Source: Planctomycetia bacterium (lineage in GTDB: Bacteria; Planctomycetota; Planctomycetia; Gemmatales; Gemmataceae). From it: DNA of 48,145 bases. A program made the position numbers and the translations under genes. The DNA is taken from assembly GCA_005808665.1 (NCBI GenBank), contig SYLG01000021.1, positions 1-48,145 of the forward strand. Direction: 5' to 3'. This document shows positions 18,824 to 34,249 of the stretch, piece after piece. The notes under the pieces are model-generated. The model was not told where the DNA came from. It ran no database searches and saw only the letters and a program-made list of their open reading frames with translations. Each line of letters opens with the position of its first letter. Within the stretch, counting starts at the first letter, position 1.

Positions 18824-21800
18824 CTATTCGCCTTGTCTACGCATATCGGAAACCTGGGGTGCCGGTTGCAACCTTGGCAAGACAACCCCAGGCCTTTGAT
18901 TTCCAGGGACTCCCAAGCTTGGACCATCCACAGTTATCGATCCAACGGTGGGGGTTTCGTTTTGGCGGCCACTGGTTGCCGTGACCGGTTGATTCCACAT
19001 GGAGAATTGGTTCCCTGTCGCCGGAACTAAAGGCCCGGAAGAATAATTCCCTCGGGAAATCTCCCCGGATGCTCCGGTCGGCTTGTTGGGTATGGAGTTG
19101 GGAAGGCTTCTGGGTTGGGGCAATTCCTCTCCACCCAGGCGATGCCTTGGGGGAATTTCTTCACCGGAAGGTCTTCGGCCCTCTTCCGGAGTCCCGGTAC
19201 CTGCCGGCGGAGTTACGGGAGGGGCACCATTGACCCCAGGGGGCCCAAAGAGGTTGGGGAATAATCGCTTCTTGGTGGGTTCTGCCGGAATCGTTCCATC
19301 CACATCCCCAGGAGGTGGAAGAATGGGTTGCATTCCCGAAGGCCCATGGGCCTTGATCACATCCCCAACCAACCAACTCATGCGTGAGGCTTCCATTGCC
19401 AAGACCCGGTCGGCCTCAAGGCGATTGCGCACCACATGGGGGGTTAGGATGACTAGCAATTCCTGGCGTTCCTTGAATTGTTCGCGATACCTGAAAGCGG
19501 TCCCAATCAAAGGTAGATCTCCCAACCATGGGATCTTGCGTTCTGCCTTTTCATCAACCTTGCGAATGAGCCCACCGATGGCAACCGTCTCCCCATCCTG
19601 GGCGATGACGGTGGTTTCGACGGTTTGGGTATCGACCTGAAACAGGTCGATAGCGGGGGAGCCGTTGGACCCGGGGAGTTGTTGGCCGCTCGGAGAAGCC
19701 TTGGAAACCTGGGGAGCAACGCGCATCACCACCTTGCCATCAGGAGATATTTTTGGGGTTACGACCAGCTCCACACCCACGGGAACATAACTGATGCTTT
19801 GCTGGGTAACGCCTACTGTGGCGTTACTGGCACTGATTAGTGGGAAATTGGATCCCACAAACACCCGAGCTTGCTGGTTGTCCATGGTGGTCACCTGGGG
19901 ACGACTGAGGATGTCGATTCGTCCCTGGGTTTTCAAAGCACGAATCAACAGGTTGAATGAATCCGAGGCGGCGGAAAACACCAATCCTCCAGACCCCAAT
20001 CGTTTGCTATTGCGACCCACATTGAGGGAGTTGACCCCCTGGAAGCCGACAATACCAGGTTCATAAGTACTATAAGGGTAAGGTGCGGCCCCGATAAAAT
20101 AGTTCCCTGGGTTGGCAATGGTCCCTGAGGTCTGGTTGACGGTTACACCCGTGGGCAAGGGAATCCCATTGGGTTGGCCTGTCAAACCAACCGTACCTAC
20201 TGACCCAATGGAAGGAAGTATTCCCCGTTGAAAAAGGACCGGGCTTTGGAGGCCGATTTCCACCCCAAACTCTTCGCCACCGGTTAACCGGACCTCGGCC
20301 ATCATCACCTGAATGACAACCTGGGGCTGTTCAGAATCCAATTCGTTGACAAGTTTGGTGATTTCGCCAAACCACCGTGGGGAGGCAGAAACAAGCAACT
20401 TGTTGGAAATTGGCTCGGGAACAATCACCACCTGACGATCCACCTGTTGGTAGTTACTTAGTTGTTGGCCCTGGTCCAAAACATCAAGGGATGTGGTCAA
20501 AAAGGTGTTAAGAGCGGTGGCAACATCCGCTGCGGTTGTGTTTCGCAACATGAAGATTTCGTTTCGCCTTTGCTGGATGTCAAATTCATCCAATCGGGCA
20601 ATAATTGCTTCAATCGCTTCCATATCGGATCGACTGCCTGCGACGATGATGCTGTTGGTCCGTTCATCAACCCCCATGCGAAGGTCAATAATGGGTGCGC
20701 CTGGTTGACTTGACCCTCCCAGGGAAATTTGCAAACCTCGACCAATTGCATTTGTCTGGGAATTGGCACCCTGATTACCGACTCCCAAGCCACCAAAGGC
20801 GGGGTTGGCCCCTTGCTGTTGCCCGGTCCGCCCAGCACCACCCGTGGTGGAACCAGAAGGATTAAACAGGTTCTGGATGGTTGTTGCTAGGGAGGTGGCA
20901 TCGGCCTTCTTTAAGGGAAAAATGTTGATTTCCGCCCGGGCTGCAGGGGGAACATCCAACTCCTTCAACAGCGAAATGATCAGTTCAACGGACTTTTCCG
21001 GAGCGGAGATAATCAAACGGTTGGTCCTGACATCCGCTGTAATATGAATATCCTCAAGGACCCCTGATTCGATGGCCTTACCGTCTTTGTCCCGGTTAAC
21101 AATTCTCAAGGTCTGGGCTTTGGTGCCCGTGCCGCGCACTGCGGTTGTGTTGGTGGTATTTTGTTGTCCCCCACCAAAGAAGGCTGCAAATCCACCCCCG
21201 CCTTGCTGTTGGGTTCCAGTACCTGGTACCGCAATCCCTTGCTGGATCGCCCCATTGATCATTGTGGCAAGCTCTTCCGCAATGGCATACTTAAGGGGAA
21301 ATACCCGTAATTCATTTACCGCTTTGGAGACATTGGAGTCCACTTTTTCGATAAGTGCCTTGATTTCCTCCAAGTCTGCCGCCGAGGCTTGGACAAAGAC
21401 CGTATTGGACCCATCATCTGCGGTCACCCGAACCTGGTTTTGAGCGGTAGCTTCGCCTGGGAACCGATTGGCGTAAAAATTGGTAATAAGGGTGGCAACC
21501 CTTGAGGCAGGGGCCCTTTGCAATTGAAAAGGAATGGCTCGGGACGCTTCGGAATTGGGTTTGTCGAGTTTCTTGAGATCAGCCACGATCTCTTCCATGC
21601 GTCCTTTGGGGGCTGCGACAAAGATCGCATTTTGACGGGGAACGGGAATGAGGATTACACTTCCCAATTGCTGTTGGCCTTGGGCTCCCTGCTGGGGTTG
21701 TTGCCCCCCAAAGATTGCTCCAAAGGGGAAACCACCCCCCTGGGGTTGGGCCTGAGGTTGACCCGGTTGGCCCCCCGGTTGGGCCTGAATGGCACGAGTA

Positions 21801-24800
21801 TTCCCGGTTGCACTAACCACCACAGCCCGGTAAAGCTGCGAGAATGTCGCCGCTATGCTGGTGGGGTCACCATAGAGCATGGGGACCAACAGTATCTGGA
21901 AATCCGAGGCCACGCCGTTTTTACGGATGAACTCAATGATTTTGATGACCGCCTCAATGTCGGCGGCATTGTTCCCGCTTAAAACCAGAACCCCCAACTG
22001 GCTCAAGGATTCCACGGTAACCGATTCTTTTGGACCGGCAACATTGTCCGCCCTGCTCGTGACAGGGGGTTGAAGAGCTACAGGAGCTTGGCCCGGAATG
22101 GTTTGTAACCAGGTAACATTCTGGATACCATTCTCGGCGATTACCCTTGCCGGGGTTGGATCCTGCCTTGGGTCGTAAAGCGGGGATTGCCCAAAACCTT
22201 CTGGTCCGTTGTTGTTTTGTGTCCTTGGGTCATCCATGACCGCTTGGACGAAAAAATCCGGATTCCCTGGATCAGTCAACCTGACTTGGGGACTGGGGGC
22301 TTCTTCCGCCCGTTGAGGAGGCCTGCCGCCCCCACCACCGCCACCACCCCTGCCACCGAATCCGCCCATGCCACCACCGCCGCCGCCCCGGCCACCGAAC
22401 CCACCCATGCCACCACCACCCATGCCACCGCCACCCATGCCACCGCCACGGCCGCCGAAACCACCACCACCCATACCGCCACCGCCCATGCCACCACCAC
22501 GGCCGCCGAAGCCACCACCCATACCGCCAAAGGGTGAACCACCGGCCCCACCCAAGGCTCCAGAAGCCGCAGGTCGGGTGGATGTCCGGCCCTGAATGGC
22601 ATCAATCGCCTGCTGAACAAGAGCGGGATCAATACCGTTTACCTGAACCACCCGGACCACCTTGGAATTGTTCGGTTTGGCAGAGTTTTCCATGTACTCG
22701 ACCAATTTGGAAATGTCCTCGTAAAGGGTTTGGGGGCAATAAAGCAGGAGGCTATTGCTTTTTTCGTCCACCCCAATGCTTAGGGAAACGCGGTTTCCTC
22801 CTTGTTGTCCACCACCCCCGCCGCCAAAAGGGAAACCCATCCCGGGAAAACCACCGGCCGAGCTGGATGCCCCGGATGCTTGGGTCAACCCCCTGAAAAC
22901 ATCCTGAATGGTTCGGGAGGCATCGAGAGCGTTAATGTTTTCGAGTGGACCAAGGACCCAGGTCTTCGGAACCGCAAGAGAATCACTCTCGCCTGAATCG
23001 AGGGCTTTTTCCAAAAGCTTTTTGATGGTAATAATGTCCAGTTTGCTTGCCCGGATCAAAAGCGTGTTACTGGTGCTGTCGGCAACGACCCGGATGCGAT
23101 TGGGAGTTGCATTGGTAGGGGTTGATCCGCCGCCACCAATACCGGCAAAGCGAAGTAATGGGCTGAGCCCACCCAGCATTCCTCCTGCTCCCCCCGCCCC
23201 TTGGGCCTGGGCTGGACCATTGAATGCTTCCTCAAGAACTTTGGCCACCTGAGCCGCACTTGCTGTTTTCAGGCGAACGATTTCGAAATCCCCTTCGTTG
23301 GAGGGGGCCGAGGTCAAAACCCGGACGAGTTCCTGGGCAAGGTTCAGGGTCTCCTCATCATCGCAAGAAAGGAGAACGCGATTTCCCAAGACAGAGATCT
23401 TCAAAGGGGCATCTTTGCGGCCGGGAAGGTCCCTTCCCACCAACCGGGGCTGAACCAGGGGTTGGGTGGGCAAACCCAATTGCGGTTGGGTTGGGACAGC
23501 GGAAGGTTGCTGGGGAACCTCTTGGACCTGGGCATTGACAAAAGCAAAATTCCCCGGGTTGGGAAGCGATACTTCGGGAATCCCGGGGGCATCGGTGTTC
23601 TTTTTCGGGGTCGTCATGGGAATGCGCTGGAAGGGGGGGACAGGATTCACCGGACTTGCGGGCCCACTTATGGTTGGGTTAATCAGCCGAACCGGGTTTG
23701 CCCGCATCTGGGGAAGCATTCGCTCCAAGGATTCGGCAAGGTCCGAAGCACTCCCTTTATCAATATTCAGGATCCTGAGGTTCCCCGATCCCCCAATGCC
23801 ATTCGCCCCATTAAGGGCTTTGATGATCTGTTCGACTTCGAGTACCTGGTCAGCAGGTCCACGAATAATGATCGCATTGCGATCAATGGAGGCCTCAAGG
23901 TAAGGCGCCCCCGACCTTGCATCACCAAGCATTCCTTTAAGCGTTTCCACCACCACGGTGGGGTTCAAAGCACCCACAGGCAATAGTGAAGTTCGGACTC
24001 CCTTTTCGGTGCCGGACCCAAGGATTTGTTTGGCAATTTCCATTTGATCATCAGGCGTTGCGTAGACAATCATGGTGTTCGGATTCGCCGCACTGATGCG
24101 AACGACAGGACTGGTTCTGTAAATTTCGGTAAGGGTCTTGGCCAAAGCATCCGCCGTCCCGGCAGGAACGGTATATTGTTTGATGAAAGGGTTTCCCGAG
24201 ATAAAAGGAAGCTGGCCCGGGGCACCCACATCAATCCTTTTCAGGACATCCCTGGCTTGAGCCACTTTGTCCGCCGGACCGGTAACCAACACCGTATTGG
24301 TGCGATCATCTGTGGTGATGTTATGTGCCCTGGACCTTCCGGTGGTGGTACCCAAAACCCGGCCTGACCTTGGGTCAACCATTTGTTGACCAGGAGGGGC
24401 CGCAGTCATGAGTTTTGGGTCTCCCAGCAAGTCCTTGAGGATTCGTTCTGCCTCGCGGGCCTTGATAAATTTGCATTCATGATTCAGACTTTCCGCCTGA
24501 ACCTGGTTTTCGTTTTGCTCAATATCGCGGACAGTTTTGCGGATGCGCTTGAGGTTGGCAACAGTGTCCTGAAGGATTAGTTGGTTGGCCCGGGTCATGG
24601 GAACCACTTCCCCAAATGGCCCCATCATTTTTTTGATTTCGGGGGCAACATCCTCCGCCACCAGACTGGTTAGGGGTAGGACAATGGAAACCATTTCTGT
24701 GTTCCCCCTGCCATCCAATTCCTCAAGGTTAATCCGCGGGAGAATCGAGGGATCGATTTTTTCGTCTGCGGGAACCAAAGTGAAAGATCGTTCCCGCCGA

Positions 24801-25327
24801 ATCAGGTAAAATTTCTGGGTTTCGCTGTTTGCAAGGAGGGCTTCGTTGATAATGTCAATCACTTCAGGAATGGTATAAAGCTTTCCCGGAGGACCCTGGA
24901 AAGTAAAGGTTCCAGAGGGTTTGTAAGTGGTGATAATGGGAAGGTCGGTTTGATTGGTCATCCATTCAAAAACCCCGGCCCAAGGCTTGCTATCAAAGGC
25001 AAAAGCCACCTTTTTACCCCCAAAAGGCAGCAGGGCGGCTGGCACCTGGGGGGAAGCCGGGGGCGTTGTTCCTGAAAGCGGAATGGGAGCCAGGCGGTTT
25101 TGGGGCACAACCGCAGGTGTTCCCGGAAGGGGCAGAGTGCCTGTTTGATTGGGAACCAATTCAGGAGGTGCAGCTACCGGTTGGGCAACCCCTGCAAAAG
25201 GGGGAAGGGTGATGGTTTGAGCCACCAAACTGGGATGACAATAGGCCAAAGCCCATGCCACCACCCATGCTTTTTTGCTTCCAAGCACCCTACGAATTGG
25301 ACGACCAAATGAATGAGGAAGGCCCAT
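18824..25327 (-). CDS. gspD: Giant type II secretion secretin (GspD-like), 2,167 residues
   Basis: This is the outer-membrane channel of the type II secretion locus. It has an N-terminal signal (ends near LVAQ, residue 37), a Pro-rich linker, and an N0-like domain (~105-185). About thirteen N1-like repeats then run along residues 248-1665, each with Asn-x-hydrophobic strand then helix, such as NTVLVTGPADKVAQARDVLK, NAIFVAAPKGRMEEI and NKLLVSASPRWFGEITKLV. The secretin core lies at ~1666-1970 with VPVGVELVVTPKI, ETVAIGGLI and WLGDLPLIGTAFRY, and a Pro-rich tail closes the protein. Ordinary GspD has about 650-700 residues and three N1-like domains. Gly-rich inserts occur, the longest at 923-1002. 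It lies 250 bases after gspM, so it may have its own promoter. No strong Shine-Dalgarno is seen at 25327. Confidence 0.92.
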   Translation of the reverse strand: MGLPHSFGRPIRRVLGSKKAWVVAWALAYCHPSLVAQTITLPPFAGVAQPVAAPPELVPNQTGTLPLPGTPAVVPQNRLAPIPLSGTTPPASPQVPAALLPFGGKKVAFAFDSKPWAGVFEWMTNQTDLPIITTYKPSGTFTFQGPPGKLYTIPEVIDIINEALLANSETQKFYLIRRERSFTLVPADEKIDPSILPRINLEELDGRGNTEMVSIVLPLTSLVAEDVAPEIKKMMGPFGEVVPMTRANQLILQDTVANLKRIRKTVRDIEQNENQVQAESLNHECKFIKAREAERILKDLLGDPKLMTAAPPGQQMVDPRSGRVLGTTTGRSRAHNITTDDRTNTVLVTGPADKVAQARDVLKRIDVGAPGQLPFISGNPFIKQYTVPAGTADALAKTLTEIYRTSPVVRISAANPNTMIVYATPDDQMEIAKQILGSGTEKGVRTSLLPVGALNPTVVVETLKGMLGDARSGAPYLEASIDRNAIIIRGPADQVLEVEQIIKALNGANGIGGSGNLRILNIDKGSASDLAESLERMLPQMRANPVRLINPTISGPASPVNPVPPFQRIPMTTPKKNTDAPGIPEVSLPNPGNFAFVNAQVQEVPQQPSAVPTQPQLGLPTQPLVQPRLVGRDLPGRKDAPLKISVLGNRVLLSCDDEETLNLAQELVRVLTSAPSNEGDFEIVRLKTASAAQVAKVLEEAFNGPAQAQGAGGAGGMLGGLSPLLRFAGIGGGGSTPTNATPNRIRVVADSTSNTLLIRASKLDIITIKKLLEKALDSGESDSLAVPKTWVLGPLENINALDASRTIQDVFRGLTQASGASSSAGGFPGMGFPFGGGGGGQQGGNRVSLSIGVDEKSNSLLLYCPQTLYEDISKLVEYMENSAKPNNSKVVRVVQVNGIDPALVQQAIDAIQGRTSTRPAASGALGGAGGSPFGGMGGGFGGRGGGMGGGGMGGGGFGGRGGGMGGGGMGGGGMGGFGGRGGGGGGMGGFGGRGGGGGGGGRPPQRAEEAPSPQVRLTDPGNPDFFVQAVMDDPRTQNNNGPEGFGQSPLYDPRQDPTPARVIAENGIQNVTWLQTIPGQAPVALQPPVTSRADNVAGPKESVTVESLSQLGVLVLSGNNAADIEAVIKIIEFIRKNGVASDFQILLVPMLYGDPTSIAATFSQLYRAVVVSATGNTRAIQAQPGGQPGQPQAQPQGGGFPFGAIFGGQQPQQGAQGQQQLGSVILIPVPRQNAIFVAAPKGRMEEIVADLKKLDKPNSEASRAIPFQLQRAPASRVATLITNFYANRFPGEATAQNQVRVTADDGSNTVFVQASAADLEEIKALIEKVDSNVSKAVNELRVFPLKYAIAEELATMINGAIQQGIAVPGTGTQQQGGGGFAAFFGGGQQNTTNTTAVRGTGTKAQTLRIVNRDKDGKAIESGVLEDIHITADVRTNRLIISAPEKSVELIISLLKELDVPPAARAEINIFPLKKADATSLATTIQNLFNPSGSTTGGAGRTGQQQGANPAFGGLGVGNQGANSQTNAIGRGLQISLGGSSQPGAPIIDLRMGVDERTNSIIVAGSRSDMEAIEAIIARLDEFDIQQRRNEIFMLRNTTAADVATALNTFLTTSLDVLDQGQQLSNYQQVDRQVVIVPEPISNKLLVSASPRWFGEITKLVNELDSEQPQVVIQVMMAEVRLTGGEEFGVEIGLQSPVLFQRGILPSIGSVGTVGLTGQPNGIPLPTGVTVNQTSGTIANPGNYFIGAAPYPYSTYEPGIVGFQGVNSLNVGRNSKRLGSGGLVFSAASDSFNLLIRALKTQGRIDILSRPQVTTMDNQQARVFVGSNFPLISASNATVGVTQQSISYVPVGVELVVTPKISPDGKVVMRVAPQVSKASPSGQQLPGSNGSPAIDLFQVDTQTVETTVIAQDGETVAIGGLIRKVDEKAERKIPWLGDLPLIGTAFRYREQFKERQELLVILTPHVVRNRLEADRVLAMEASRMSWLVGDVIKAHGPSGMQPILPPPGDVDGTIPAEPTKKRLFPNLFGPPGVNGAPPVTPPAGTGTPEEGRRPSGEEIPPRHRLGGEELPQPRSLPNSIPNKPTGASGEISRGNYSSGPLVPATGNQFSMWNQPVTATSGRQNETPTVGSITVDGPSLGVPGNQRPGVVLPRLQPAPQVSDMRRQGE
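22321..22560. repeat. Glycine-codon minisatellite inside the secretin gene
   Basis: These ~240 bases are made of imperfect short units encoding GGMGGGG and GFGGRGG blocks (residues ~923-1002). Reading frames on the other strand here are artefacts of the repeat. The segment is likely to vary in length by slippage while staying in frame. Confidence 0.85.
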
Positions 25328-25577: not shown

Positions 25578-26756
25578 TTATTTGGGTGCCACCTTCGGTT
25601 TGGGAGGTACCAATTTTTCTAAACCCAGCTGCTTTAGCTCTTCTTTTTCCATGGGGGTGTTCACCACCGGGAAAAAAGTCTCGCCACAGCGCATTAGGTA
25701 TAGTTCCCCATCTGCTTGAAATACAATGTAGGCCGGATCAATATGCAAAAGCTTTGCTTTTAGCATCGAGTTGTCATACTTATCTTTAATCGTGAAATCT
25801 GCCCAAGCGGCAGATGTACGCAATTTGGTTTCCCGGCCTCCCCGGTTTTGATCATAAACATAGGCTTCCCACCGACGGCCATCGCCCGAAATCGTGGTTA
25901 ACTTGACACCGGATAGGACCTCCTCCCGATCTTCTTCCGGGCCACGAACCACCGAAGGGGGAGGTGGGGGCGGGGAAGGTGGAGCCGGGGGCGGGTCGTC
26001 CGGGGGGAAAAACGGGTTGGCGGAAGCCAAAACAGAGTAATCGCGAGGATTGCTTGCCAAGACCATTTGATCGGATAAAGAACTTTTCGCCTCCTTTGCC
26101 AATTTATCCGGGACCAAAGGATTGTTTTTCAAGGCCCCAGGGACCATCAACCCTTCCACGGTAAGGAGGATTTTGAGGTCGGATTTGGTTTGGGCCTTTT
26201 TGGCGTTTTCAATTTTCATGGAGGGGACATGGTGTAACAGGGGTACCCGGTGCAACATCTCCAAAAATACGCCTAGATCTTCCAACCTGCCCTGGGTGCT
26301 AATCTCAAAGGAGATTGGTTTGTAAGCGTCCTTTTTGCCCTCCTTGAAATCCAATTTGGGTATGGATTGGGTGGTAAAGGACCTTCCGACGGAAACAACC
26401 GTATTATTGGGTTTGAATCCACTATTGGTCAAAAGGTCCCGTAAAAGCGTGGAATAGTCCATCCTCACTGAAGCCAAATGGGCATTTTGGGCATCCGCCC
26501 CTGGCTTTTCCGCCACCGGAAGACTCAGTTTTCGCCAACCCTGCAAGCGGGGATGGAGTTTCAGGATGGAGGCAACCTTGTTGCTCTCTTTTTCCAAATC
26601 CGATTCGAGGCGTCCCACCTCGGTTTCCAGGGACTCCACCTGGGTATGAAGGGAAGAAATGGGGGAATAAAAACCGTAATAAAATCCCCCGCCTCCGACC
26701 CCGAAAACCATGAGGCATCCCAGGATAAGTGCCAGTGTTTTTTCTCTGGGTGTCAT
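25578..26756 (-). CDS. GspM/PilO-like protein with a C-terminal GspC/PilP-like domain
   Basis: The product is 392 residues. It has one N-terminal membrane helix (~8-28), a coiled coil (~33-62), and a PilO/GspM-like ferredoxin-fold region to ~205, including ISFEISTQGRLEDLGVFLEML, the usual PilO pattern. A proline-rich linker (~248-270) is preceded by ANPFFPP. The final domain (~280-365), with LSGVKLTTISGDGRRWEAYV, AKLLHIDPAYIVFQADGELY and LMRCGE, resembles the small beta homology region of GspC or PilP, which contacts the secretin. It would thus be an inner-membrane platform protein that also takes the GspC role. The start overlaps the gspL stop (ATGA). The fusion reading is inference from pattern; the GspM/PilO half is firmer. 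Confidence 0.7.
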   Translation of the reverse strand: MTPREKTLALILGCLMVFGVGGGGFYYGFYSPISSLHTQVESLETEVGRLESDLEKESNKVASILKLHPRLQGWRKLSLPVAEKPGADAQNAHLASVRMDYSTLLRDLLTNSGFKPNNTVVSVGRSFTTQSIPKLDFKEGKKDAYKPISFEISTQGRLEDLGVFLEMLHRVPLLHHVPSMKIENAKKAQTKSDLKILLTVEGLMVPGALKNNPLVPDKLAKEAKSSLSDQMVLASNPRDYSVLASANPFFPPDDPPPAPPSPPPPPPSVVRGPEEDREEVLSGVKLTTISGDGRRWEAYVYDQNRGGRETKLRTSAAWADFTIKDKYDNSMLKAKLLHIDPAYIVFQADGELYLMRCGETFFPVVNTPMEKEELKQLGLEKLVPPKPKVAPK

Positions 26757-28435
26757 GATTTGGCCCCCTTTGGACCTTTGGAGGAATCATTGGTTGGTGC
26801 CTCCTTGGCAGGACCCGATTGGGACGAGTTCTCCTTGCTTTGAATTTCTTTGCCCGAGCCTTCTTTTTCCTTACTTCCTTTTTCCTTACTTTCTTTTTCA
26901 GTCTTGCCTTTGGCCTCGGATGATTGCCGTGGGTCATCTTCCTCTGAAGAATCCTTCGTTTCTTCTGCTTTAGCCTTTTTTTCGGGGGGGAGCTTGGCTG
27001 GAGGCTCCAGTTTGCGGAGGTAATCCCCCGGGGCCCGCCTCCTTACATCAATTTCCAAAGTAAAATCGGAACCTTTTTGCTCCTCTTTTTCTATTTTGTA
27101 GACCCCGTCCTTGCGCAATTCATCCACAAGGGATTTGAGGGCTTCGCGTTTTTCGGCCCCACCGGGAAGAGTTCCCTTGATGGTAAGATGGCTGCGAAAA
27201 TCACTCTCTTTTTCCGGGTTACGGCGAGGGGACGCAGACATTTCGGTCACCAAAAGATCTTTAGTATTGGGTATTCGATGGGAAATGTCATACACCTCAT
27301 CAAGCCAAACGACATCGTCCCATGCTCCCAAGGCCTGTAACCGTTTGGTGTCAATTTTGTTGACCTCAAGGTCCCGTTTCAATTCGTCCCGGCGAACTTT
27401 CAGCCCTGCGACTTCATCCTCAACCCGGTTTTTTACGCCCCAAAAATACCAACCCAAAATGACTAGTGCCAACATTCCCACCAGGGAATATAAAGCGAGC
27501 CGTTGCTGGCCCTCAGGAGAAGGGGGAGGCGGTTGTTTCGGATTCAGAAAATCGGGTTCAATTTTAAGCCCTTTTTCCTCCAGGCGTGCCATCCCTGCCA
27601 AAACGCCAAGGGAAGCCGTGAAATCTTCACAATTTGTCGGAATGGATGGGGCATCCAACACACCATCAAAAGGCATTATTCTTTGGAGAGGCAGGTTGGT
27701 GGCAAGGGCCAACTCGGCATCCTGATTCCACTTGGGTGGGGATATCAAAAACAGGGATTTGGGCACCAATGTGGGGTTTTGGGATCCAAAAAGGGTTAGG
27801 CTCCGGCGAATTTCCGGAATCAGGCTACTTCCAGGATTCAGGGACCGGCTGAAAAGCGGCTTGCCATCCCGAAGAACCACCAATTCCGCCCAACCCCCGC
27901 CCAAAGCAACAAGGCCTACCGTATCCCCCTTGGGTCCCAAATCTGCCATCAATCCCGACAAACCTGCCAACCTTGGACTTAAGCCCGCCAATTTTAGTTG
28001 GGACGAGGTGGCAATGGTTTTCCATGTTTTAAAAAGCTCATTGCGAAGGAGAAGGGCTAAAATCCGCCGCTCTTCCATCCCGGGCAAATCGACCGAGACA
28101 TAGTCCAATTTGACCTCATCGGGCGACTCATTCAGGTCTCGCATTACCTGGTAGCCAACCAAACCGGGTTCTTCCGCGGGTCCCACCTTGGGAAGAGTCA
28201 ACTGCCTTGCAATAAGGCGATCCCTGGGCAACGAAACCACCAACCGGGCACCCGGCACTGCAAAATCCTTGAGAAAGGCTTTGAGTTGATCGGCCTGCTC
28301 TTCCGCCATAACAGGATTGGGACTGCCTTCGGTGGCAATGGTAAGGACTTTGCAACCGCCAAGCCCCTTGCGGGCGGTTAAGCCCAAAATGCTTAACCGG
28401 TCATTATCCCAATCAATATAAACCTTGCGGATCAT
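26753..28435 (-). CDS. gspL: GspL-like protein: PilM-type actin fold fused to PilN-type domain
   Basis: The product is 560 residues. Residues 1-275 form a PilM/GspL actin-like domain (RKVYIDWDNDRLSILGL, LVVSLPRDRLIARQLTLPKV, VGLVALGGGWAELVVLRDG). A Pro-rich linker, one membrane helix (~314-334), a coiled coil (~335-362) and a PilN-like periplasmic domain (~365-475) follow. The last ~80 residues are a Lys/Glu/Ser-rich charged tail, which is not usual. GspL recruits the GspE ATPase to the inner-membrane platform and pairs with GspM, here translationally coupled downstream by a four-base overlap. It is 96 bases after gspK. Confidence 0.85.
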   Translation of the reverse strand: MIRKVYIDWDNDRLSILGLTARKGLGGCKVLTIATEGSPNPVMAEEQADQLKAFLKDFAVPGARLVVSLPRDRLIARQLTLPKVGPAEEPGLVGYQVMRDLNESPDEVKLDYVSVDLPGMEERRILALLLRNELFKTWKTIATSSQLKLAGLSPRLAGLSGLMADLGPKGDTVGLVALGGGWAELVVLRDGKPLFSRSLNPGSSLIPEIRRSLTLFGSQNPTLVPKSLFLISPPKWNQDAELALATNLPLQRIMPFDGVLDAPSIPTNCEDFTASLGVLAGMARLEEKGLKIEPDFLNPKQPPPPSPEGQQRLALYSLVGMLALVILGWYFWGVKNRVEDEVAGLKVRRDELKRDLEVNKIDTKRLQALGAWDDVVWLDEVYDISHRIPNTKDLLVTEMSASPRRNPEKESDFRSHLTIKGTLPGGAEKREALKSLVDELRKDGVYKIEKEEQKGSDFTLEIDVRRRAPGDYLRKLEPPAKLPPEKKAKAEETKDSSEEDDPRQSSEAKGKTEKESKEKGSKEKEGSGKEIQSKENSSQSGPAKEAPTNDSSKGPKGAKS

Positions 28436-28531: not shown

Positions 28532-30034
28532 CTATAAGCCCGCCAATTTTGCCGGGTCAGCTCCAGCATCCCGGGCTTGACGGGCCTTTTCCGAAAGGTC
28601 CCGGAAGTATACCACACGAGGCCTTGGACCGCTGGTATCAACCACGACTTCCATTAGGCTCATTGGGCCGCTTCCATCGAGTTTACCCATTATGCGGACT
28701 CGGTAGGCTGTGGAAAACCCGGTAACATACCTTTCAATGGAGCGAATTTTGGAGGGGTCCATATTGGCTTCCGTGAACAACCAGGTGGGGCTTTGGTAGA
28801 GCGGATCCCCGGAGCTCATCGCCGAGGGCCGATATCCAACAATGTTTTGGAGGTCCGATTCCATCAAAGAGGGCAATCCGGCAAGCAAGGCCGGTTGGGC
28901 GGTTAGCAGGTTGAGTTTGCCAGGCAAATCCAAATCCTGACTGGTGGAAAACCCCTGGTAAAGTAGGGGTAGATATTGCCTGGCGGTTATGGGGTCCTTG
29001 AGTGGGCTGGGAAAGGTCACGGTTGCCTGGGTCTTTCCCTCACCGACTTTGACATCCACATTTTTGGATACAAGATCCATGATGTTGGAGATCTTGTTCA
29101 GTTTGGTCATTCCCGTAGAGGCTTCCTGGATTTTTTTGTTAAGCTCGGTGGTGACTTTGGTGTAGTCCGCATTAGCCATGCCACCTACGCCGGAGCTTGA
29201 GCCTTTTCCCGCAGCAAGGTTGGCAAGGACAGTGACCGTGCTAACGGGTTGTTTGGATGCCCCATAAAGCCTGTAGGCCATTATAAAATTGGTCACCCGC
29301 TCACCCACCATGGTGTTCAAACCTTGTTGCATGGTGGCAAGGTCCGGATTGTTGAAATTGATCTTTGGGGTCCAGGCGTTGGTGGAAGAATTGGATGGCT
29401 GAACCAGGTTTTGCTCCCGGGAATAGACGGTAAAAAAGCTGGCCAAACCCGGGCTTGTCGAGTCACCAAAAAGGATTTCCTGGGAAACCCCTTTCACCAA
29501 AAGCAATTCATCGATGCTGTCCAGGGGACCATTTTTACAGTAATAGGAGGGTTGAAGGAGGTTGTAATATTCGTTTTCCGCCCCGCCTTCTCCAGGGGTA
29601 TCGTTGTTGTCCACCCAGTCGACAATGGAGTCGATGATATTGTCCGCCAGGGTTGGAATCTGAACCTGCATCCGTTTGAGGGTGGATTTCAGGATTTCGC
29701 CGTTTGGATCCACCTGAAGGAGGGCATTGATGTTCCACTTGGCGGATTCATCATCCACCGTGAGAACCTCAAAAGTACCCATCTGCTTCCCGCCGCCAAG
29801 GGAAAGGGATTGGACGGTTCCGGCTTGGGGAATATTGCCTTGAGCCAATTCGGAAAGGACGAAAGCCACACCGGAGTCTGCCAGGGCACGAGCTTGAACA
29901 AGACGAACCGCAGAATCCGTGGCACGGTATTCCGCCACCATGTTGTCATTGAACCGGTAGGCAACCAGGGCCAAAAAAGAGACCACCAAAAGCACCGCAA
30001 ACAACACAACCCCTCTGCGGATTTCTCCGGGCAA
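28532..30034 (-). CDS. gspK: GspK-like minor pseudopilin
   Basis: The product is about 500 residues. The N-terminus has the prepilin cleavage site RRG|VVLFAVLLVVSFLALVAY, lacking the Glu at +5 as is typical of GspK, the tip pseudopilin. The large globular part contains the GspK block DSIVDWVDNND, GAENEYYN, and PLDSIDELLLVKGV. The start is uncertain. A TTG at 30034 has no ribosome site, while AAGGGG (30076-30081) sits eight bases before an in-frame ATT at 30067 that would give MKLNLKPNRLPLPGEIRRG. GspK with GspI and GspJ caps the pseudopilus. It is longer than enterobacterial GspK (about 320). Confidence 0.88.
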   Translation of the reverse strand: MPGEIRRGVVLFAVLLVVSFLALVAYRFNDNMVAEYRATDSAVRLVQARALADSGVAFVLSELAQGNIPQAGTVQSLSLGGGKQMGTFEVLTVDDESAKWNINALLQVDPNGEILKSTLKRMQVQIPTLADNIIDSIVDWVDNNDTPGEGGAENEYYNLLQPSYYCKNGPLDSIDELLLVKGVSQEILFGDSTSPGLASFFTVYSREQNLVQPSNSSTNAWTPKINFNNPDLATMQQGLNTMVGERVTNFIMAYRLYGASKQPVSTVTVLANLAAGKGSSSGVGGMANADYTKVTTELNKKIQEASTGMTKLNKISNIMDLVSKNVDVKVGEGKTQATVTFPSPLKDPITARQYLPLLYQGFSTSQDLDLPGKLNLLTAQPALLAGLPSLMESDLQNIVGYRPSAMSSGDPLYQSPTWLFTEANMDPSKIRSIERYVTGFSTAYRVRIMGKLDGSGPMSLMEVVVDTSGPRPRVVYFRDLSEKARQARDAGADPAKLAGL

Positions 30035-30079: not shown

Positions 30080-31390
30080 TTATTTTGCCTTGCTGCCACC
30101 GCTGGCCCCTGTCGAGGTCCCTGGGGGTTTGGTTGCGCCTGAACCTTGGCTACCGCCGGACGGTCTGGCACCACCTGTAGATCCGGTGGAGCCCGTTTTG
30201 GCACCACCCGAAGATCCGGAGGAGCCCGTTTTGGCACCAGAAGAGGAAGAGCCCCCGGAGGATGACCCAGTTTTCGCACCGGAGGAGGAAGATCCCCCGG
30301 GGGAGGCTCCACTGGACCCGGCATTGGAACTTTCGGCAGAAGCCGCACCCGTACCCGGGTCATTGGCACCAGGACTTACCACTTTGCCAAGGCCAATGGT
30401 GTTAGCGGTGGGAAGGGCAACAACCTGTGAGTATTTGCGAGTTGTTTTCCCATCCCCGAAATCCATTTCCACCTCGATTTTCACGGCCCGAGGGGGGCCT
30501 TGGGGTGTCGAATGGTCATAACTCAGGGCCCTACTATCCCAAAAATTGGTCCAATACCCCGGGGTGCCATCGTTATAACTGAACTGGATGGAACGAACTT
30601 CAGGAGCAATGATGTACTGGTCCACATCGGTGGGAAGGATTCCTGTACTAACCACTTCGGGGGAGGAGACCTGACTGGACTCCCAACGGGCAAGTCCCAG
30701 CCCTTCCCCCGCAACCCAATAGGTGATTCGCTTGATATCACAGGTTGGCCCCGAATTTACCCCGGTCTGGCCCCCATTGCCTGCCATGGGTTTGACATAG
30801 GGTAAGGTTCCGGCTTGAAAGGCGGTTACTTGACTTTCATAACCCACAATTCCTGGAATGAAAAGGACCCTTGTTAGGGCTGGAGTATCCGTCGAAGAGC
30901 TTGAGGAGGAGCCACTCCCTGACGAGGAGTTGCCACCAGATGAGGTCCCGGAAGAATTGGAGGAGCTTCCGGATCCAGAGGAGGCTCCCGAACTTCCGGA
31001 GGATCCGCTGGAACCTGATGAACCCGTTGACCCGGTGGAACCTGTTGACCCGGAGGATCCTGTGGAACCTGTTGAGGATGAATCTGTGGCCGAGGAATCG
31101 GTGGAACCGCCCTCCTCCACCGGATACGACAACTCTCCACTTCGGAATGGTCCGGGATTATTGACTGTGATGGATCCCACCATGTCCCTTGCAATGCGGT
31201 CCATCAACGCCCGGGCCAAGGTAGATTGGGCGATAGCATCGCGGCTGTTTTGAGTCGTTAAAACTTGAAACTCCACCACTACATAAAGCCCACCCAAGAG
31301 AAAAACACTAATGGCACTGGCCAATAGGGCTTCAAGAAGGGTAAATCCCTGCCTTTTGAAATCCTGTTTGGGACAACCAGTGCTTCTCAT
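30080..31390 (-). CDS. gspJ: GspJ-like minor pseudopilin with Ser/Gly-rich insert and tail
   Basis: The product is 436 residues from the ATG at 31390, which has AAGGA nine bases upstream. An in-frame ATG at 31429 overlaps the gspI stop (ATGA) and would add 13 residues. The prepilin peptide is KRQG|FTLLEALLASAISVFLLGGL with Glu at +5. Family features include STLARALMDRIARDMVGSI and IKRITYWVAGEGLGLARWE. Two low-complexity stretches are present: a Ser/Gly/Thr tract (~96-167) inside the globular domain and a Ser/Gly/Lys tail (~348-436) with repeated SSGAKTGSS. The normal GspJ is about 200 residues, so the extra length is almost all low complexity. Confidence 0.85.
   Translation of the reverse strand: MRSTGCPKQDFKRQGFTLLEALLASAISVFLLGGLYVVVEFQVLTTQNSRDAIAQSTLARALMDRIARDMVGSITVNNPGPFRSGELSYPVEEGGSTDSSATDSSSTGSTGSSGSTGSTGSTGSSGSSGSSGSSGASSGSGSSSNSSGTSSGGNSSSGSGSSSSSSTDTPALTRVLFIPGIVGYESQVTAFQAGTLPYVKPMAGNGGQTGVNSGPTCDIKRITYWVAGEGLGLARWESSQVSSPEVVSTGILPTDVDQYIIAPEVRSIQFSYNDGTPGYWTNFWDSRALSYDHSTPQGPPRAVKIEVEMDFGDGKTTRKYSQVVALPTANTIGLGKVVSPGANDPGTGAASAESSNAGSSGASPGGSSSSGAKTGSSSGGSSSSGAKTGSSGSSGGAKTGSTGSTGGARPSGGSQGSGATKPPGTSTGASGGSKAK
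30890..31105. repeat. Ser/Gly codon repeat inside gspJ
   Basis: About 216 bases encode near-pure Ser, Gly and Thr (GSTGSSGSTGSTGS type). The segment interrupts the GspJ fold between RSGELSYPVEEGG and TPALTRVLFIPG, where a loop must be. A second Ser/Gly-coding tract (about 30083-30349) encodes the tail. Confidence 0.75.
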
Positions 31391-31397
31391 GAAAACC

Positions 31398-31423
31398 AAT
31401 CCTTTGAACGAATCCTTTGAACG
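31398..31423. repeat. Two tandem 13-base units before the gspJ start
   Basis: AATCCTTTGAACG occurs twice in direct succession on the plus strand. On the coding strand each unit carries AAAGGAT, a Shine-Dalgarno-like element. The repeat lies between the two candidate gspJ starts, so copy number changes both the spacing and the frame of the upstream ATG. Confidence 0.75.
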
Positions 31424-31425
31424 AA

Positions 31426-31938
31426 TCATTTGCCCGTAGTACCAGTTGAGCTACTCCCCGTGGAACCTGCGGAACCGGTCGTAGCGGCCCCATTTGTACC
31501 CGTGGTCCCGGTGCCTTGGTCGGTTTCCTCGGGAATAGCATCCATCGTGCTACCCAGGGCCTGGGGATCGGCCAAGTATTGAACCAACTCCACCTTTGAC
31601 CGGGCAAATCCATCCCTTTGGGCTGTAATCGTCACCTGAAAAAGAACGGGTCCAAGCGGCTGGACATCGGCGGTCCAAATGTAACGATCATCCGTTTCCC
31701 AATTGCCGTTGGCATTGGAAAGGGCGGTAAAGCCCGCCTTCATCTCGGCTACCTTGGATTCCGCAACCAAAAGGGCAATGCTGCGCTGGCCAGCCTCCTC
31801 GGCCCGTTCCCTGGCCATGTCCACCAGGTTGCTAATCGCCATGATCGACATGAAAAAAATAGCCAAGGCGATCAACACTTCCAACAGGGTCATTCCCTGG
31901 CGGCGGCCAGACCTTGGGCGTCGTGGAAAAGGCTTCAT
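31426..31938 (-). CDS. gspI: GspI-like minor pseudopilin
   Basis: The product is 170 residues with the prepilin site RRQG|MTLLEVLIALAIFFMSIMAISNL (cleavage after residue 15, Glu at +5). The segment GQRSIALLVAESKVAEM is typical of GspI. The C-terminal 30 residues are a Thr/Gly/Ser tail (GTGTTGTNGAATTGSAGS). AAAGGTG precedes the ATG. It starts four bases after gspH and overlaps the next gene. Role: nucleates the pseudopilus tip with GspJ and GspK. Confidence 0.85.
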   Translation of the reverse strand: MKPFPRRPRSGRRQGMTLLEVLIALAIFFMSIMAISNLVDMARERAEEAGQRSIALLVAESKVAEMKAGFTALSNANGNWETDDRYIWTADVQPLGPVLFQVTITAQRDGFARSKVELVQYLADPQALGSTMDAIPEETDQGTGTTGTNGAATTGSAGSTGSSSTGTTGK

Positions 31939-31942
31939 GTTT

Positions 31943-32485
31943 TCACCTTTCCACCGAAGAGGTTCCTGTCAAAGCCCGAAGGTTGATCAGAATCGACCGG
32001 ACACCCAACCCTTCACACGAAAGGGTCGCATCCACATCCGCCCTTCCATCCGGAAAAAAAACAGCCACCTGCACCCAGGAGTTTGGATTGACCGAACCGA
32101 CCTCCTGGGCCGTTTGCCGATCTCCAAAATCCATGACCTCGCCCTCGGAAACGCCATGATCAAGGGCTACTACCACCCCATCAGGCAGCGAATCTTCATG
32201 TTCTTCGGAATCGTCCCCGGAGCCCCCGGTCCAAAACTCATCGCGATCGGGTGCCGCACGGAGGTTGCCCGCACCATCGACAATGCACAGCCTATAGGGT
32301 TCCCCCTCCTCTATGGCGAGGTGGCGAGCCATGGCAATGACTTCCCGGATGGTATCCGATGCCGATTTAAGGGTTTGCCCTTTGAACCATCCCGTCATGG
32401 TGGGATAGGCCATTGCCGAAAGCATGACGATTACCGCCAAGACCAACACCATCTCCAGAATGGTGAATCCGCCTCGGCGCTTCAT
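31943..32485 (-). CDS. gspH: GspH-like minor pseudopilin
   Basis: The product is 180 residues with a short leader and prepilin site RRGG|FTILEMVLVLAVIVMLSAMAYP. The GspH-type segment TLKSASDTIREVIAMARHLAIEEGEPYRLCI follows, and a central acidic stretch (SGDDSEEHEDSLPDG). GGAGG lies eight bases before the ATG. The position between the major pseudopilin and gspI is the standard order. Confidence 0.85.
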   Translation of the reverse strand: MKRRGGFTILEMVLVLAVIVMLSAMAYPTMTGWFKGQTLKSASDTIREVIAMARHLAIEEGEPYRLCIVDGAGNLRAAPDRDEFWTGGSGDDSEEHEDSLPDGVVVALDHGVSEGEVMDFGDRQTAQEVGSVNPNSWVQVAVFFPDGRADVDATLSCEGLGVRSILINLRALTGTSSVER

Positions 32486-32514
32486 GTGCGTAGCCTCCGG
32501 GAGTTAAAGGGGCG

Positions 32515-32928
32515 TTATTTGGGTGCATTACCCAAGGGTTTGCCCGCCTTGGTGGTGGTCCAAACATAACAGGTTCGATTGTTTTCATCCTCAACAACCT
32601 GAAACTGAAAGGGTTGACCCCAGGGATCAATCAGAGTTTCGGGTTTTTCCAAGTAGGAGGGAACCAATTCCTGAAGAGACCCAGGCCACTCCCCTGTGTT
32701 GGTTTTGTAGGATTTTGCGGCAGTTGAAATGGTGGTGGAGTTGATCGCGGCGGTTTTCTCCTTGGACCGTTCCAGTTCATTCATGAAGGCTACCGATCCA
32801 AGACCCGCCAGCACGACAATGATCGCCATGACGACCAGGATTTCCATCAGGGTAAAGCCACGGCGTGTTAGGTGGCCTGCAACTCTCAAGGGGCGATTTG
32901 TCAATTGGTTTTCAAGGTTGATACGCAT
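32515..32928 (-). CDS. gspG: GspG-like major pseudopilin
   Basis: The product is 137 residues. The leader ends TRRG|FTLMEILVVMAIIVVLAGLGSVAF with Glu at +5. The GspG hallmarks are present: a helical KTAAINSTTISTAAKSYKTNTGEWP region and the DPWGQPFQF motif near the C-terminus. It should polymerise into the periplasmic pseudopilus. The 24-residue leader is longer than usual. GGAG sits nine bases before the ATG. It follows gspF by 83 bases. Confidence 0.92.
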   Translation of the reverse strand: MRINLENQLTNRPLRVAGHLTRRGFTLMEILVVMAIIVVLAGLGSVAFMNELERSKEKTAAINSTTISTAAKSYKTNTGEWPGSLQELVPSYLEKPETLIDPWGQPFQFQVVEDENNRTCYVWTTTKAGKPLGNAPK

Positions 32929-33011: not shown

Positions 33012-34217
33012 TCAATCGATGGCACTCGACATTCGGAAGACGGGTAACAAAAGGCCCGCAACAACCATTAATGTGAGTGCCGCCATCACCAACAACATCA
33101 TGGGTTCCAAAAGCCGGACAAAAAGATCCAACTCCCGGGTAGTACGCTTTTCCAAGCTGTTAGCAATGTCAAGCAATACCTTTTCCAAATTGTTGCTTTC
33201 CTCCCCCACCGAGACCATTTCCACCAGGTCCTTGGGGAAATACTTGCTGTTGGCCAAAGGGGTGGCCAAACTATCCCCAGCCTTGATGTTTTCGGCACTT
33301 TTTTCAATAGCTTCGGCAATCATTTTATTGCCCGTGGAATCTTTTGCGATTCTAAGCGATTGAAGGATAGGAATACCATTCTTTAAAAGTGTACCCAATA
33401 TCCGGGCAAATCGGGCGATCGCCAAGCTTAAAAAGATCCGGCCTGCTCCCGGAAGAGCAATCTTGAACGCATCGACGGACTTTCGCCCGGTTTCGGATTC
33501 GGCCCAGCGTTTGAAACAATACCAAAGGCCAACCCCAATCAGGACCAGAAAAATGCCATAGGTCTGAAGGGTGTGGCTTAAGCCAATGAGAGCCTCGGTG
33601 ATCAAAGGCAGCTGGCCTTTTTCCCGGAGCCTGGTGAATATCTGTTCAAACTGGGGTACGAAAAAAATGACCAATATGTTGAGGATGATAAAACCAATAA
33701 CGGCCAGGAAAATCGGGTAGGCCATGGCTCCGGTGACCTTGGCCCGAAGCTCTTCCTGCTGTTCGGTAAAATCGGCGATTCGCCGCAAGACATCCTCCAG
33801 GAACCCACCCTCTTGCCCCGCCAAAACCATACTGACGGCAAGCTCGCCGAAAACTTTGGGATGCATTCCAAAGGCTTGGGCCAATCCGGTTCCTTCGGCA
33901 ACCTTGCTCCGGACTTCCTTGATGACAGCTGAAAAGGCCGGGTTGGACGATTGCCGTTCCAAAATCTCCAACGATCTCAAAAGGGGCACACCGGACTGAA
34001 GCAGGTCCGCAAGCTGGGAAAAAAAACTCGTCAAGACCCGGGTAGAGACCCGAATGGCGGATCCCGTGCGAACTGTTCCCTGAACCACCTCTACCTTGAT
34101 GGGCATCAAACCGCGTGAATCCAACACCGACACGGCTTCCCGTTCGGTATTGGCGGACAATACGCCCTGACTCTTTTGACCTGTTGCCCCCAAGGCGATA
34201 TAGCTGAAATCCGGCAT
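33012..34217 (-). CDS. gspF: Type II secretion inner-membrane platform protein GspF
   Basis: The product is 401 residues, the family length. It starts MPDFSYIALGATGQKSQGVL and has two cytoplasmic GspF domains, the first with FSQLADLLQSGVPLLRSLEIL and the second with FARILGTLLKNGIPILQSLRIA. Three membrane segments are visible, including IFLAVIGFIILNILVIFFVP and the C-terminal MLLVMAALTLMVVAGLLLP. It links the GspE ATPase to pseudopilus assembly. It lies 32 bases after gspE. Confidence 0.95.
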   Translation of the reverse strand: MPDFSYIALGATGQKSQGVLSANTEREAVSVLDSRGLMPIKVEVVQGTVRTGSAIRVSTRVLTSFFSQLADLLQSGVPLLRSLEILERQSSNPAFSAVIKEVRSKVAEGTGLAQAFGMHPKVFGELAVSMVLAGQEGGFLEDVLRRIADFTEQQEELRAKVTGAMAYPIFLAVIGFIILNILVIFFVPQFEQIFTRLREKGQLPLITEALIGLSHTLQTYGIFLVLIGVGLWYCFKRWAESETGRKSVDAFKIALPGAGRIFLSLAIARFARILGTLLKNGIPILQSLRIAKDSTGNKMIAEAIEKSAENIKAGDSLATPLANSKYFPKDLVEMVSVGEESNNLEKVLLDIANSLEKRTTRELDLFVRLLEPMMLLVMAALTLMVVAGLLLPVFRMSSAID

Positions 34218-34249
34218 TTCTAATGTTTTCCTGTGGGAGTGCCGTTGGC

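What the first reader, a model, noticed from the sequence alone, without database searches (positions are those of the whole stretch)
25578..28435. Platform genes fused: PilM-PilN (GspL) and PilO/GspM with a GspC/PilP-like domain
The locus has no separate gspC. The GspM-position protein has, after a proline linker and an NPFFPP motif, an ~85-residue domain with the strand pattern of the GspC/PilP homology region. With gspL being PilM+PilN-like, two genes would cover the whole MNOP platform. This would be a compact bridge between the inner membrane and the extended secretin.
Basis: inference. Interest (0 to 1): 0.75.

Follow-up and report, generated by a model that had tools for sequence, protein, structure and literature searches.

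The report
GspM–GspC fusion in planctomycete secretion platform
In this planctomycete's type II-like secretion machine, the inner-membrane protein GspM carries the secretin-docking domain that other bacteria put on a separate protein (GspC or PilP), and the same fusion is found across the whole class of bacteria, so the two parts must be made one-to-one.

Summary
In an E-F-G-H-I-J-K-L-M-D operon, the 392-aa GspM-position protein (25578-26756, -) has one transmembrane helix, a coiled coil, a PilO/GspM-like domain, an NPFFPP motif with an invariant Phe, a proline linker and an ~80-residue GspC/PilP/GspB-type homology-region (HR) domain. No separate gspC or pilP was detected in the locus or genome. 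Identification of HR rests on a profile chain. Window-type HR matches class-wide fused HR (98.7%). Fused HR matches stand-alone HR proteins of other planctomycetes (97%; far above shuffles and decoys). Stand-alone HR matches solved GspC structures (4e-8). One relative matches the NCBI GspM and GspC models on its two halves. In other planctomycete classes, and in second systems of some relatives, GspM and HR are separate adjacent genes before gspD. Fused systems form one clade on a GspE tree. 'GspL = PilM+PilN' is ordinary: GspL always has that make-up. PilO-PilP fusions were already noted in type IV pili (PMC3169554), so this is a new, class-wide variant of a known kind. It bears on the disputed GspM:GspC stoichiometry.

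The parts
25578..26756 (-). gspM-gspC fusion ORF, 392 aa (PilO-PilP equivalent)
   Evidence: ORF; A1 profile hit in 96/148 class genomes
26667..26738 (-). single N-terminal transmembrane helix of M (about residues 7-30)
   Evidence: hydropathy, windows starting at residues 7-9 only
26556..26654 (-). predicted coiled coil of M (about residues 35-67)
   Evidence: sequence pattern; profile matches to coiled-coil chains
26136..26474 (-). PilO/GspM-like periplasmic domain (about residues 95-207)
   Evidence: own sequence weak: PF04350 E 0.2; relatives match GspM NF040576 down to 3.8e-8; profile matches stand-alone M genes of other planctomycetes at about 1e-7 to 1e-8
26001..26018 (-). NPFFPP motif, first Phe (F249) invariant across the class
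   Evidence: the same (N/D/S)PF motif precedes HR in stand-alone C proteins
25920..26000 (-). proline-rich linker
   Evidence: sequence
25659..25919 (-). HR domain of GspC/PilP/GspB type (about residues 280-366), with a ~10-residue insertion typical of Gemmatales
26753..28435 (-). gspL, 560 aa: PilM-like cytoplasmic half, one TM (about 313-335), PilN/GspL-like periplasmic part, K/E-rich tail
   Evidence: family profile to PilM 2ych 2.6e-26; PilM_2 10/23, PilN 4/23, GspL_C 3/23 members; TM
18824..25327 (-). gspD, extended secretin, 2167 aa, 11 Secretin_N stretches plus Secretin domain
   Evidence: PF03958 4.9e-102; PF00263 5.1e-45
24710..25009 (-). N0-like domain of the secretin (residues 107-206), the presumed dock for HR
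   Evidence: hhalign 97.1% to N0 of unfused planctomycete secretins, score 58.7 vs shuffle maximum 21.1
28532..30034 (-). gspK (context)
   Evidence: PF21687 1e-16
30080..32928 (-). gspJ, gspI, gspH, gspG pseudopilins (context)
33012..35950 (-). gspF and gspE (context)
   Evidence: PF00482 1.8e-59; PF00437 4.7e-136

Best explanation
The M gene is a fusion of gspM (pilO) with the HR-bearing part of gspC (pilP). With L (PilM+PilN make-up) and D (PilQ/GspD), two platform genes cover the M-N-O-P functions in the order MN-OP-Q. Shown: gene order, one TM, domain composition, conservation over the class, and stand-alone M + HR gene pairs in other planctomycetes. [quoted passage not shown] The fused HR would therefore do the tethering of GspC, with GspM and HR fixed at 1:1. 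A single fusion of neighbouring genes in an ancestor of the class, with loss of GspC's own membrane anchor, explains the distribution.
For: Profile chain: Gemmatales (window-type) HR vs class-type fused HR 98.7%, score 85.9 (shuffle maximum 22.2). Class-type fused HR vs stand-alone planctomycete HR 97%, score 54.5 (shuffle maximum 13.8). All fused vs stand-alone: 48.9, against 13.5 for 200 shuffles and 20.9 for the best of 77 decoy windows. A6-A8 97.3%. Full-length window-family vs class-family alignment 100%, spanning both halves (the two alignments share the window sequence). Stand-alone HR profile, known GspC left out: the best eight PDB hits are all GspC, GspB or PilP (6hcg OutC 4e-8). Stand-alone proteins match Pfam T2SSC (7 of 11), T2SSB (6) and PilP (2). 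Relative L084 matches GspM on residues 17-163 (5.7e-6) and GspC_delta on 197-317 (1.9e-5) in one chain. Gene pairs M|C before D: L102, L041, L048, L112-L114. Fused systems are one clade on the GspE tree, 96/96. N0 is present in the secretin. HR domains of GspC, GspB and PilP are reported to bind secretin N0 (PMC3169554, PMC9239104).
Against: The window's own HR is too diverged to hit PF11356, PF04351 or any PDB chain directly. The fused-only profile finds GspC in PDB only at E = 1.4, below repeat-protein artefacts. Directly against two proteobacterial GspC sequences the fused profile scores 20.9, no better than the best decoy, so the case rests on the intermediate sequences. No structure could be predicted. 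Secretins of several fused systems lack a detectable N0, so the docking partner may differ there.
Confidence: 0.84

Rival explanations
1. The C-terminal domain is an HR, but it descends from GspB (the assembly/anchoring factor) rather than GspC/PilP, so it works mainly in secretin assembly.
For: Stand-alone relatives match Pfam T2SSB in 6 of 11 cases (4.1e-5 best), and the GspB HR has the same fold and N0 site (PMC9239104).
Against: T2SSC matches are stronger and as frequent (7 of 11; 1.7e-10 best); the fused proteins match the NCBI GspC model; PDB hits rank GspC above GspB; the position between the PilO-like gene and the secretin is that of pilP.
Confidence: 0.1
2. The C-terminal domain is an unrelated small beta domain (for instance cell-wall or substrate binding) that only resembles HR in strand pattern.
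For: No direct significant hit of the window protein to any GspC/PilP model; the best direct Pfam hit on the region is a weak DivIC match (0.0058).
Against: The profile chain with shuffled and decoy controls, the GspC_delta matches, the shared (N/D/S)PF-plus-linker motif and the stand-alone M-HR gene pairs.
Confidence: 0.05
3. Ordinary case: the same thing as the PilO-PilP fusions already noted in type IV pili, reached independently and with no consequence for the machine.
For: PMC3169554 mentions a few PilO-PilP fusions, e.g. Pseudomonas putida Q88CU9; gene order here is that of pilMNOPQ.
Against: Not exclusive with the main reading. Here the fusion is class-wide, sits in an operon with GspG-K pseudopilins and no pilT, and replaces gspC altogether.
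Confidence: 0.35

Closest known systems
PilO-PilP fusion of type IV pili (e.g. Pseudomonas putida, UniProt Q88CU9, cited in PMC3169554)
   Same: Same two domains (PilO/GspM and PilP/GspC-HR) in one chain.
   Different: Described there as a few cases in T4P systems. Here it is a T2SS-like operon with GspG-K pseudopilins and is the standard form in a class. Not compared by sequence here.
Proteobacterial T2SS GspC + GspM (e.g. Klebsiella PulC/PulM, E. coli GspC)
   Same: HR domain tethers secretin to platform; M is a bitopic protein with coiled coil and ferredoxin-like periplasmic domain.
   Different: Two genes, gspC usually at the other end of the operon with its own TM and a PDZ/coiled-coil second domain; measured PulC:PulM is about 2:1 (PMC6882859), impossible for a fusion without a second HR source.
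T4aP PilMNOPQ
   Same: Gene order MN-OP-Q; L is nearer to PilM structures than to GspL; NPF-type motif before HR.
   Different: PilM/PilN and PilO/PilP are fused here; no pilT in the operon; PilP is a separate lipoprotein in T4aP (own knowledge).
GspB/OutB HR (PMC9239104)
   Same: HR fold, binds secretin N0.
   Different: Separate assembly factor with peptidoglycan anchoring; weaker match.
Unfused planctomycete systems (L102, L103, L112-L114)
   Same: Same gene order M-C-D, same (N/D/S)PF-linker-HR arrangement.
   Different: M about 175-202 aa and C about 176-218 aa as separate genes; C has its own signal/TM segment.

Membership tests
GspM / PilO | N-terminal TM, coiled coil, ferredoxin-like periplasmic domain | tested here: met
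   one TM; relatives match GspM NF040576 to 3.8e-8 and T2SSM/PilO weakly; profile matches stand-alone M. The fold itself was not modelled.
GspC | HR domain | tested here: met
   profile chain and GspC_delta matches in relatives; no direct hit from the window protein
GspC | own N-terminal TM/anchor and separate gene | tested here: not met
   HR is the C-terminus of M; no separate gene found
GspC | second periplasmic region (PDZ or helix) after HR | tested here: not met
   only ~26 residues follow HR; no PDZ match
PilP | position between pilO and pilQ, xPF motif, HR-like beta domain | tested here: met
   gene order L-M-D; NPFFPP and HR. The xPF motif as a PilP feature is own knowledge.
PilP | lipoprotein | tested here: not met
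   domain is tethered through M; no own signal sequence
GspL | actin-like cytoplasmic domain + TM + ferredoxin-like periplasmic domain in one chain | tested here: met
   PilM structures 2ych/3jc8/5eou hit residues 1-220; TM at about 313; PilN/GspL_C in some members
Type II secretion system | E, F, G-K pseudopilins, L, M, D in one cluster | tested here: met
Type II secretion system | separate gspC (mandatory in the detection model of PMC6668835) | tested here: not met
   model rule
Type IV pilus | retraction ATPase pilT in the system | tested here: not met
   no pilT in the window cluster; pilT lies elsewhere (C86, C28) beside other pilB genes, without secretin or M/L homologues in those stretches
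HR-secretin pair | HR binds secretin N0 | not testable with these tools
   N0 present in the window secretin; structure prediction off

The most novel reading that the evidence does not exclude
The class-wide GspM-HR fusion without any separate GspC fixes GspM:HR at 1:1. With a hexameric ATPase/GspL hub, only six (or another multiple of the GspM number) HR tethers would then hold a very long, up to ~2,200-residue secretin. This would be a natural counter-example to the 2:1 GspC:GspM ratio measured in Klebsiella and would show that a T2SS-type machine works with one tether per platform subunit.
Probability: 0.4. Interest if true: 0.65.

Novelty: new variant of a known kind. Interest (0 to 1): 0.52.

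Why it matters
How many GspC molecules tether a T2SS secretin is unsettled. Klebsiella gives PulC:PulM about 2:1 (PMC6882859). The XpsCLM work prefers 1:1:1 complexes and says GspC dimers are unconfirmed (PMC11981180). In 2011 PilO-PilP fusions were used to argue, indirectly, for 1:1 (PMC3169554). A T2SS-type system in which GspM and HR are one chain across a bacterial class gives a direct place to test this. It may also explain why planctomycete systems escape standard annotation: a published detection model makes gspC mandatory (PMC6668835), and few T2SS were found outside Proteobacteria (PMC4793230). Stand-alone M + C genes in other planctomycetes, and in second systems of the same genomes, supply a matched comparison.

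Tried and rejected
Direct searches of the window protein and its close family against Pfam, NCBIfam and PDB gave nothing significant for the C-terminal domain. The fused-only HR profile against PDB gave artefacts: summed repeats of designed 'Pizza' propellers at about 9 bits each, with GspC at E = 1.4; not counted as support. Direct fused-vs-two-GspC hhalign equals the best decoy; not counted. The possible extra HR in the own genome (C10, E 7.5e-4) is an acetolactate synthase small subunit. The A5 profile misses the window's own HR, so by itself it cannot exclude another diverged HR. The A2 profile finds the window's HR at 2e-38 and nothing else in the genome. Assembly artefact rejected: the same fusion occurs in closed genomes. 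GspC/PilP controls from Gammaproteobacteria could not be drawn as a panel. A plasmid search found no relatives.

Full report
What is there. The window is one contig (C100) of a planctomycete genome of 4.48 Mb in 186 contigs, rated 100% complete. Genus mates are MAGs labelled Gemmataceae (Lake Baikal) and Singulisphaera sp.. On the - strand lies an operon in the order E, F, G, H, I, J, K, L, M, D. L and M overlap by four bases. M, the 392-residue protein of the finding, has one hydrophobic segment at its N-terminus, a coiled coil, a region weakly matching PilO, NPFFPP, a proline run, and a C-terminal beta-patterned domain followed by about 26 residues.

The C-terminal domain is an HR domain. 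The window protein alone gives no significant match, so I built the case through relatives. A first search found homologues in 37 of 59 related genomes, aligned over the whole length; the Phe of the NPF motif is invariant. A profile of these found 96 of 148 genomes of the class, with both halves scored in one open frame in 68. In the other 28 genomes nearly all of the frames are long (over 500 residues), but the HR half was not scored with this profile; for one of them (G233) a second profile does find it, at 7.6e-20.

Phylum-wide searches with the Pfam GspC and PilP models turned up, in other planctomycete classes, small stand-alone proteins with a signal or TM segment, an (N/D/S)PF motif, a linker and an HR domain. 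In several of them this gene lies directly after an M-like gene and before gspD. Three class members (L112-L114) have, beside their fused system, a second system with a 202-residue M, a 216-218-residue HR protein and a secretin.

Profile-profile comparison links all steps. Window-type HR to class-type fused HR: 98.7%, score 85.9, shuffle maximum 22.2. Class-type fused HR to stand-alone HR: 97%, score 54.5, shuffle maximum 13.8. All fused to stand-alone: 48.9, against 13.5 for 200 column shuffles and 20.9 for the best of 77 decoy windows from the same operons. A profile of the stand-alone HR alone, with known GspC left out, has as its best eight PDB hits only GspC, GspB and PilP (OutC 6hcg 4e-8). 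Stand-alone proteins also match Pfam T2SSC, T2SSB and PilP. One class member, L084, matches the NCBI GspM model with its first half (5.7e-6) and the GspC_delta model with its second (1.9e-5). The weak points are stated in Tried and rejected: the direct comparison of fused HR with two proteobacterial GspC sequences is no better than the best decoy, and the fused-only PDB search is not significant.

L. The family profile of L hits PilM crystal structures (2ych 2.6e-26) over its first ~220 residues, with PilN or GspL_C matches in some members and a TM at about residue 313. That is the composition of any GspL. So the first half of the finding's title is ordinary; the notable part is M.

No separate gspC. 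Four searches of the own genome found none: PF11356 and PF04351, the window-type HR profile, which finds only the window's own copy at 2e-38, and the general HR profile, whose sole hit is an acetolactate synthase subunit. The PilP control rang in none of the 14 control genomes, so that one negative is weak. Another pilB/pilT/pilC/prepilin cluster (C86) and a pilT/pilB pair (C28) contain no M, L or HR homologue in the stretches read.

Evolution. On a GspE tree the fused systems form one side of a single branch with support 96/96, consistent with one fusion of neighbouring M and C genes and loss of C's own anchor. Several stand-alone systems sit on long branches, so their order outside is unsure.

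Mechanism. Shown: domain content, order, single TM, co-occurrence with a secretin that carries an N0-like domain at residues 107-206 (97.1% to N0 of unfused secretins). Established for other systems: HR of GspC, GspB and PilP binds secretin N0 (PMC3169554, PMC9239104, PMC6882859). Inferred: M pairs with L in the inner membrane and its HR holds the secretin base, with the linker giving reach. A fusion without other HR sources fixes GspM:HR at 1:1. This matters because Klebsiella PulC:PulM is about 2:1 (PMC6882859), while the Xanthomonas study models 1:1:1 and notes that GspC dimers are unconfirmed (PMC11981180).

Comparison with what is known. PilO-PilP fusions in type IV pili were noted in 2011 and used to argue for a 1:1 GspM:GspC ratio (PMC3169554). 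I found no paper describing a GspM-GspC fusion or a planctomycete version in the searched open library; subscription papers are mostly not held. The finding is therefore a new, class-wide variant of a known kind. Gene order (MN-OP-Q) and PilM-like L make the platform look T4P-like, while the pseudopilins and extended GspD look T2SS-like; whether the HR should be called GspC or PilP is partly a matter of naming.

Open point. Several fused systems (L080, L085, L088, L090, L091) have secretins with no N0 detectable by two profiles, yet keep HR. Either N0 has diverged or HR docks elsewhere.

Noticed in passing
L093:9386-10579, L095:9164-10342, L099:9096-10991, L022:1489-3441: In some families Ig/cadherin-like domains (He_PIG, best 7e-16) are inserted between the GspM-like part and the HR, lengthening the tether; M proteins reach 632 aa.
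   Followed up: partly
L080, L085, L088, L090, L091 (secretin N-termini): Secretins of several fused systems lack a detectable N0 domain and start with KH-like N repeats, although HR is kept in M.
   Followed up: partly
L112:9152-12910, L113:9917-13688, L114:9420-13262: Genomes with the fused system also carry a second cluster with separate M, HR protein (NPF motif) and a ~800-aa secretin with an N-terminal extension before N0.
   Followed up: partly
window 18824-25327: Secretin of 2167 aa with 11 Secretin_N stretches and glycine-rich inserts; fused systems read here have secretins of 995-2192 aa, while all but one of the unfused ones (L101, 1340 aa) are 533-858 aa. One clade, so not independent evidence.
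   Followed up: partly
L125:5780-11008 (own genome, C11): A second secretin ORF (1743 aa, PF00263 7e-23) with no platform genes recognised in the 20 kb read.
   Followed up: partly
L123:793-12361 (own genome, C86): Cluster of two PilB-like ATPases, PilT, PilC and several prepilins without secretin or L/M homologues.
   Followed up: no
window 27500-27550 (L residues ~297-308): A DFLNPKQPPPP motif (P299 invariant in 23 L proteins) just before the TM recalls the N-terminal motif by which PilN binds PilM; from own knowledge, not tested.
   Followed up: no
window 26753-27025 (end of L): About 90-residue K/E/S-rich tail at the C-terminus of L.
   Followed up: no
window 25659-25919: Gemmatales HR domains carry a ~10-residue insertion relative to the rest of the class, which may be why standard HR models miss them.
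   Followed up: partly
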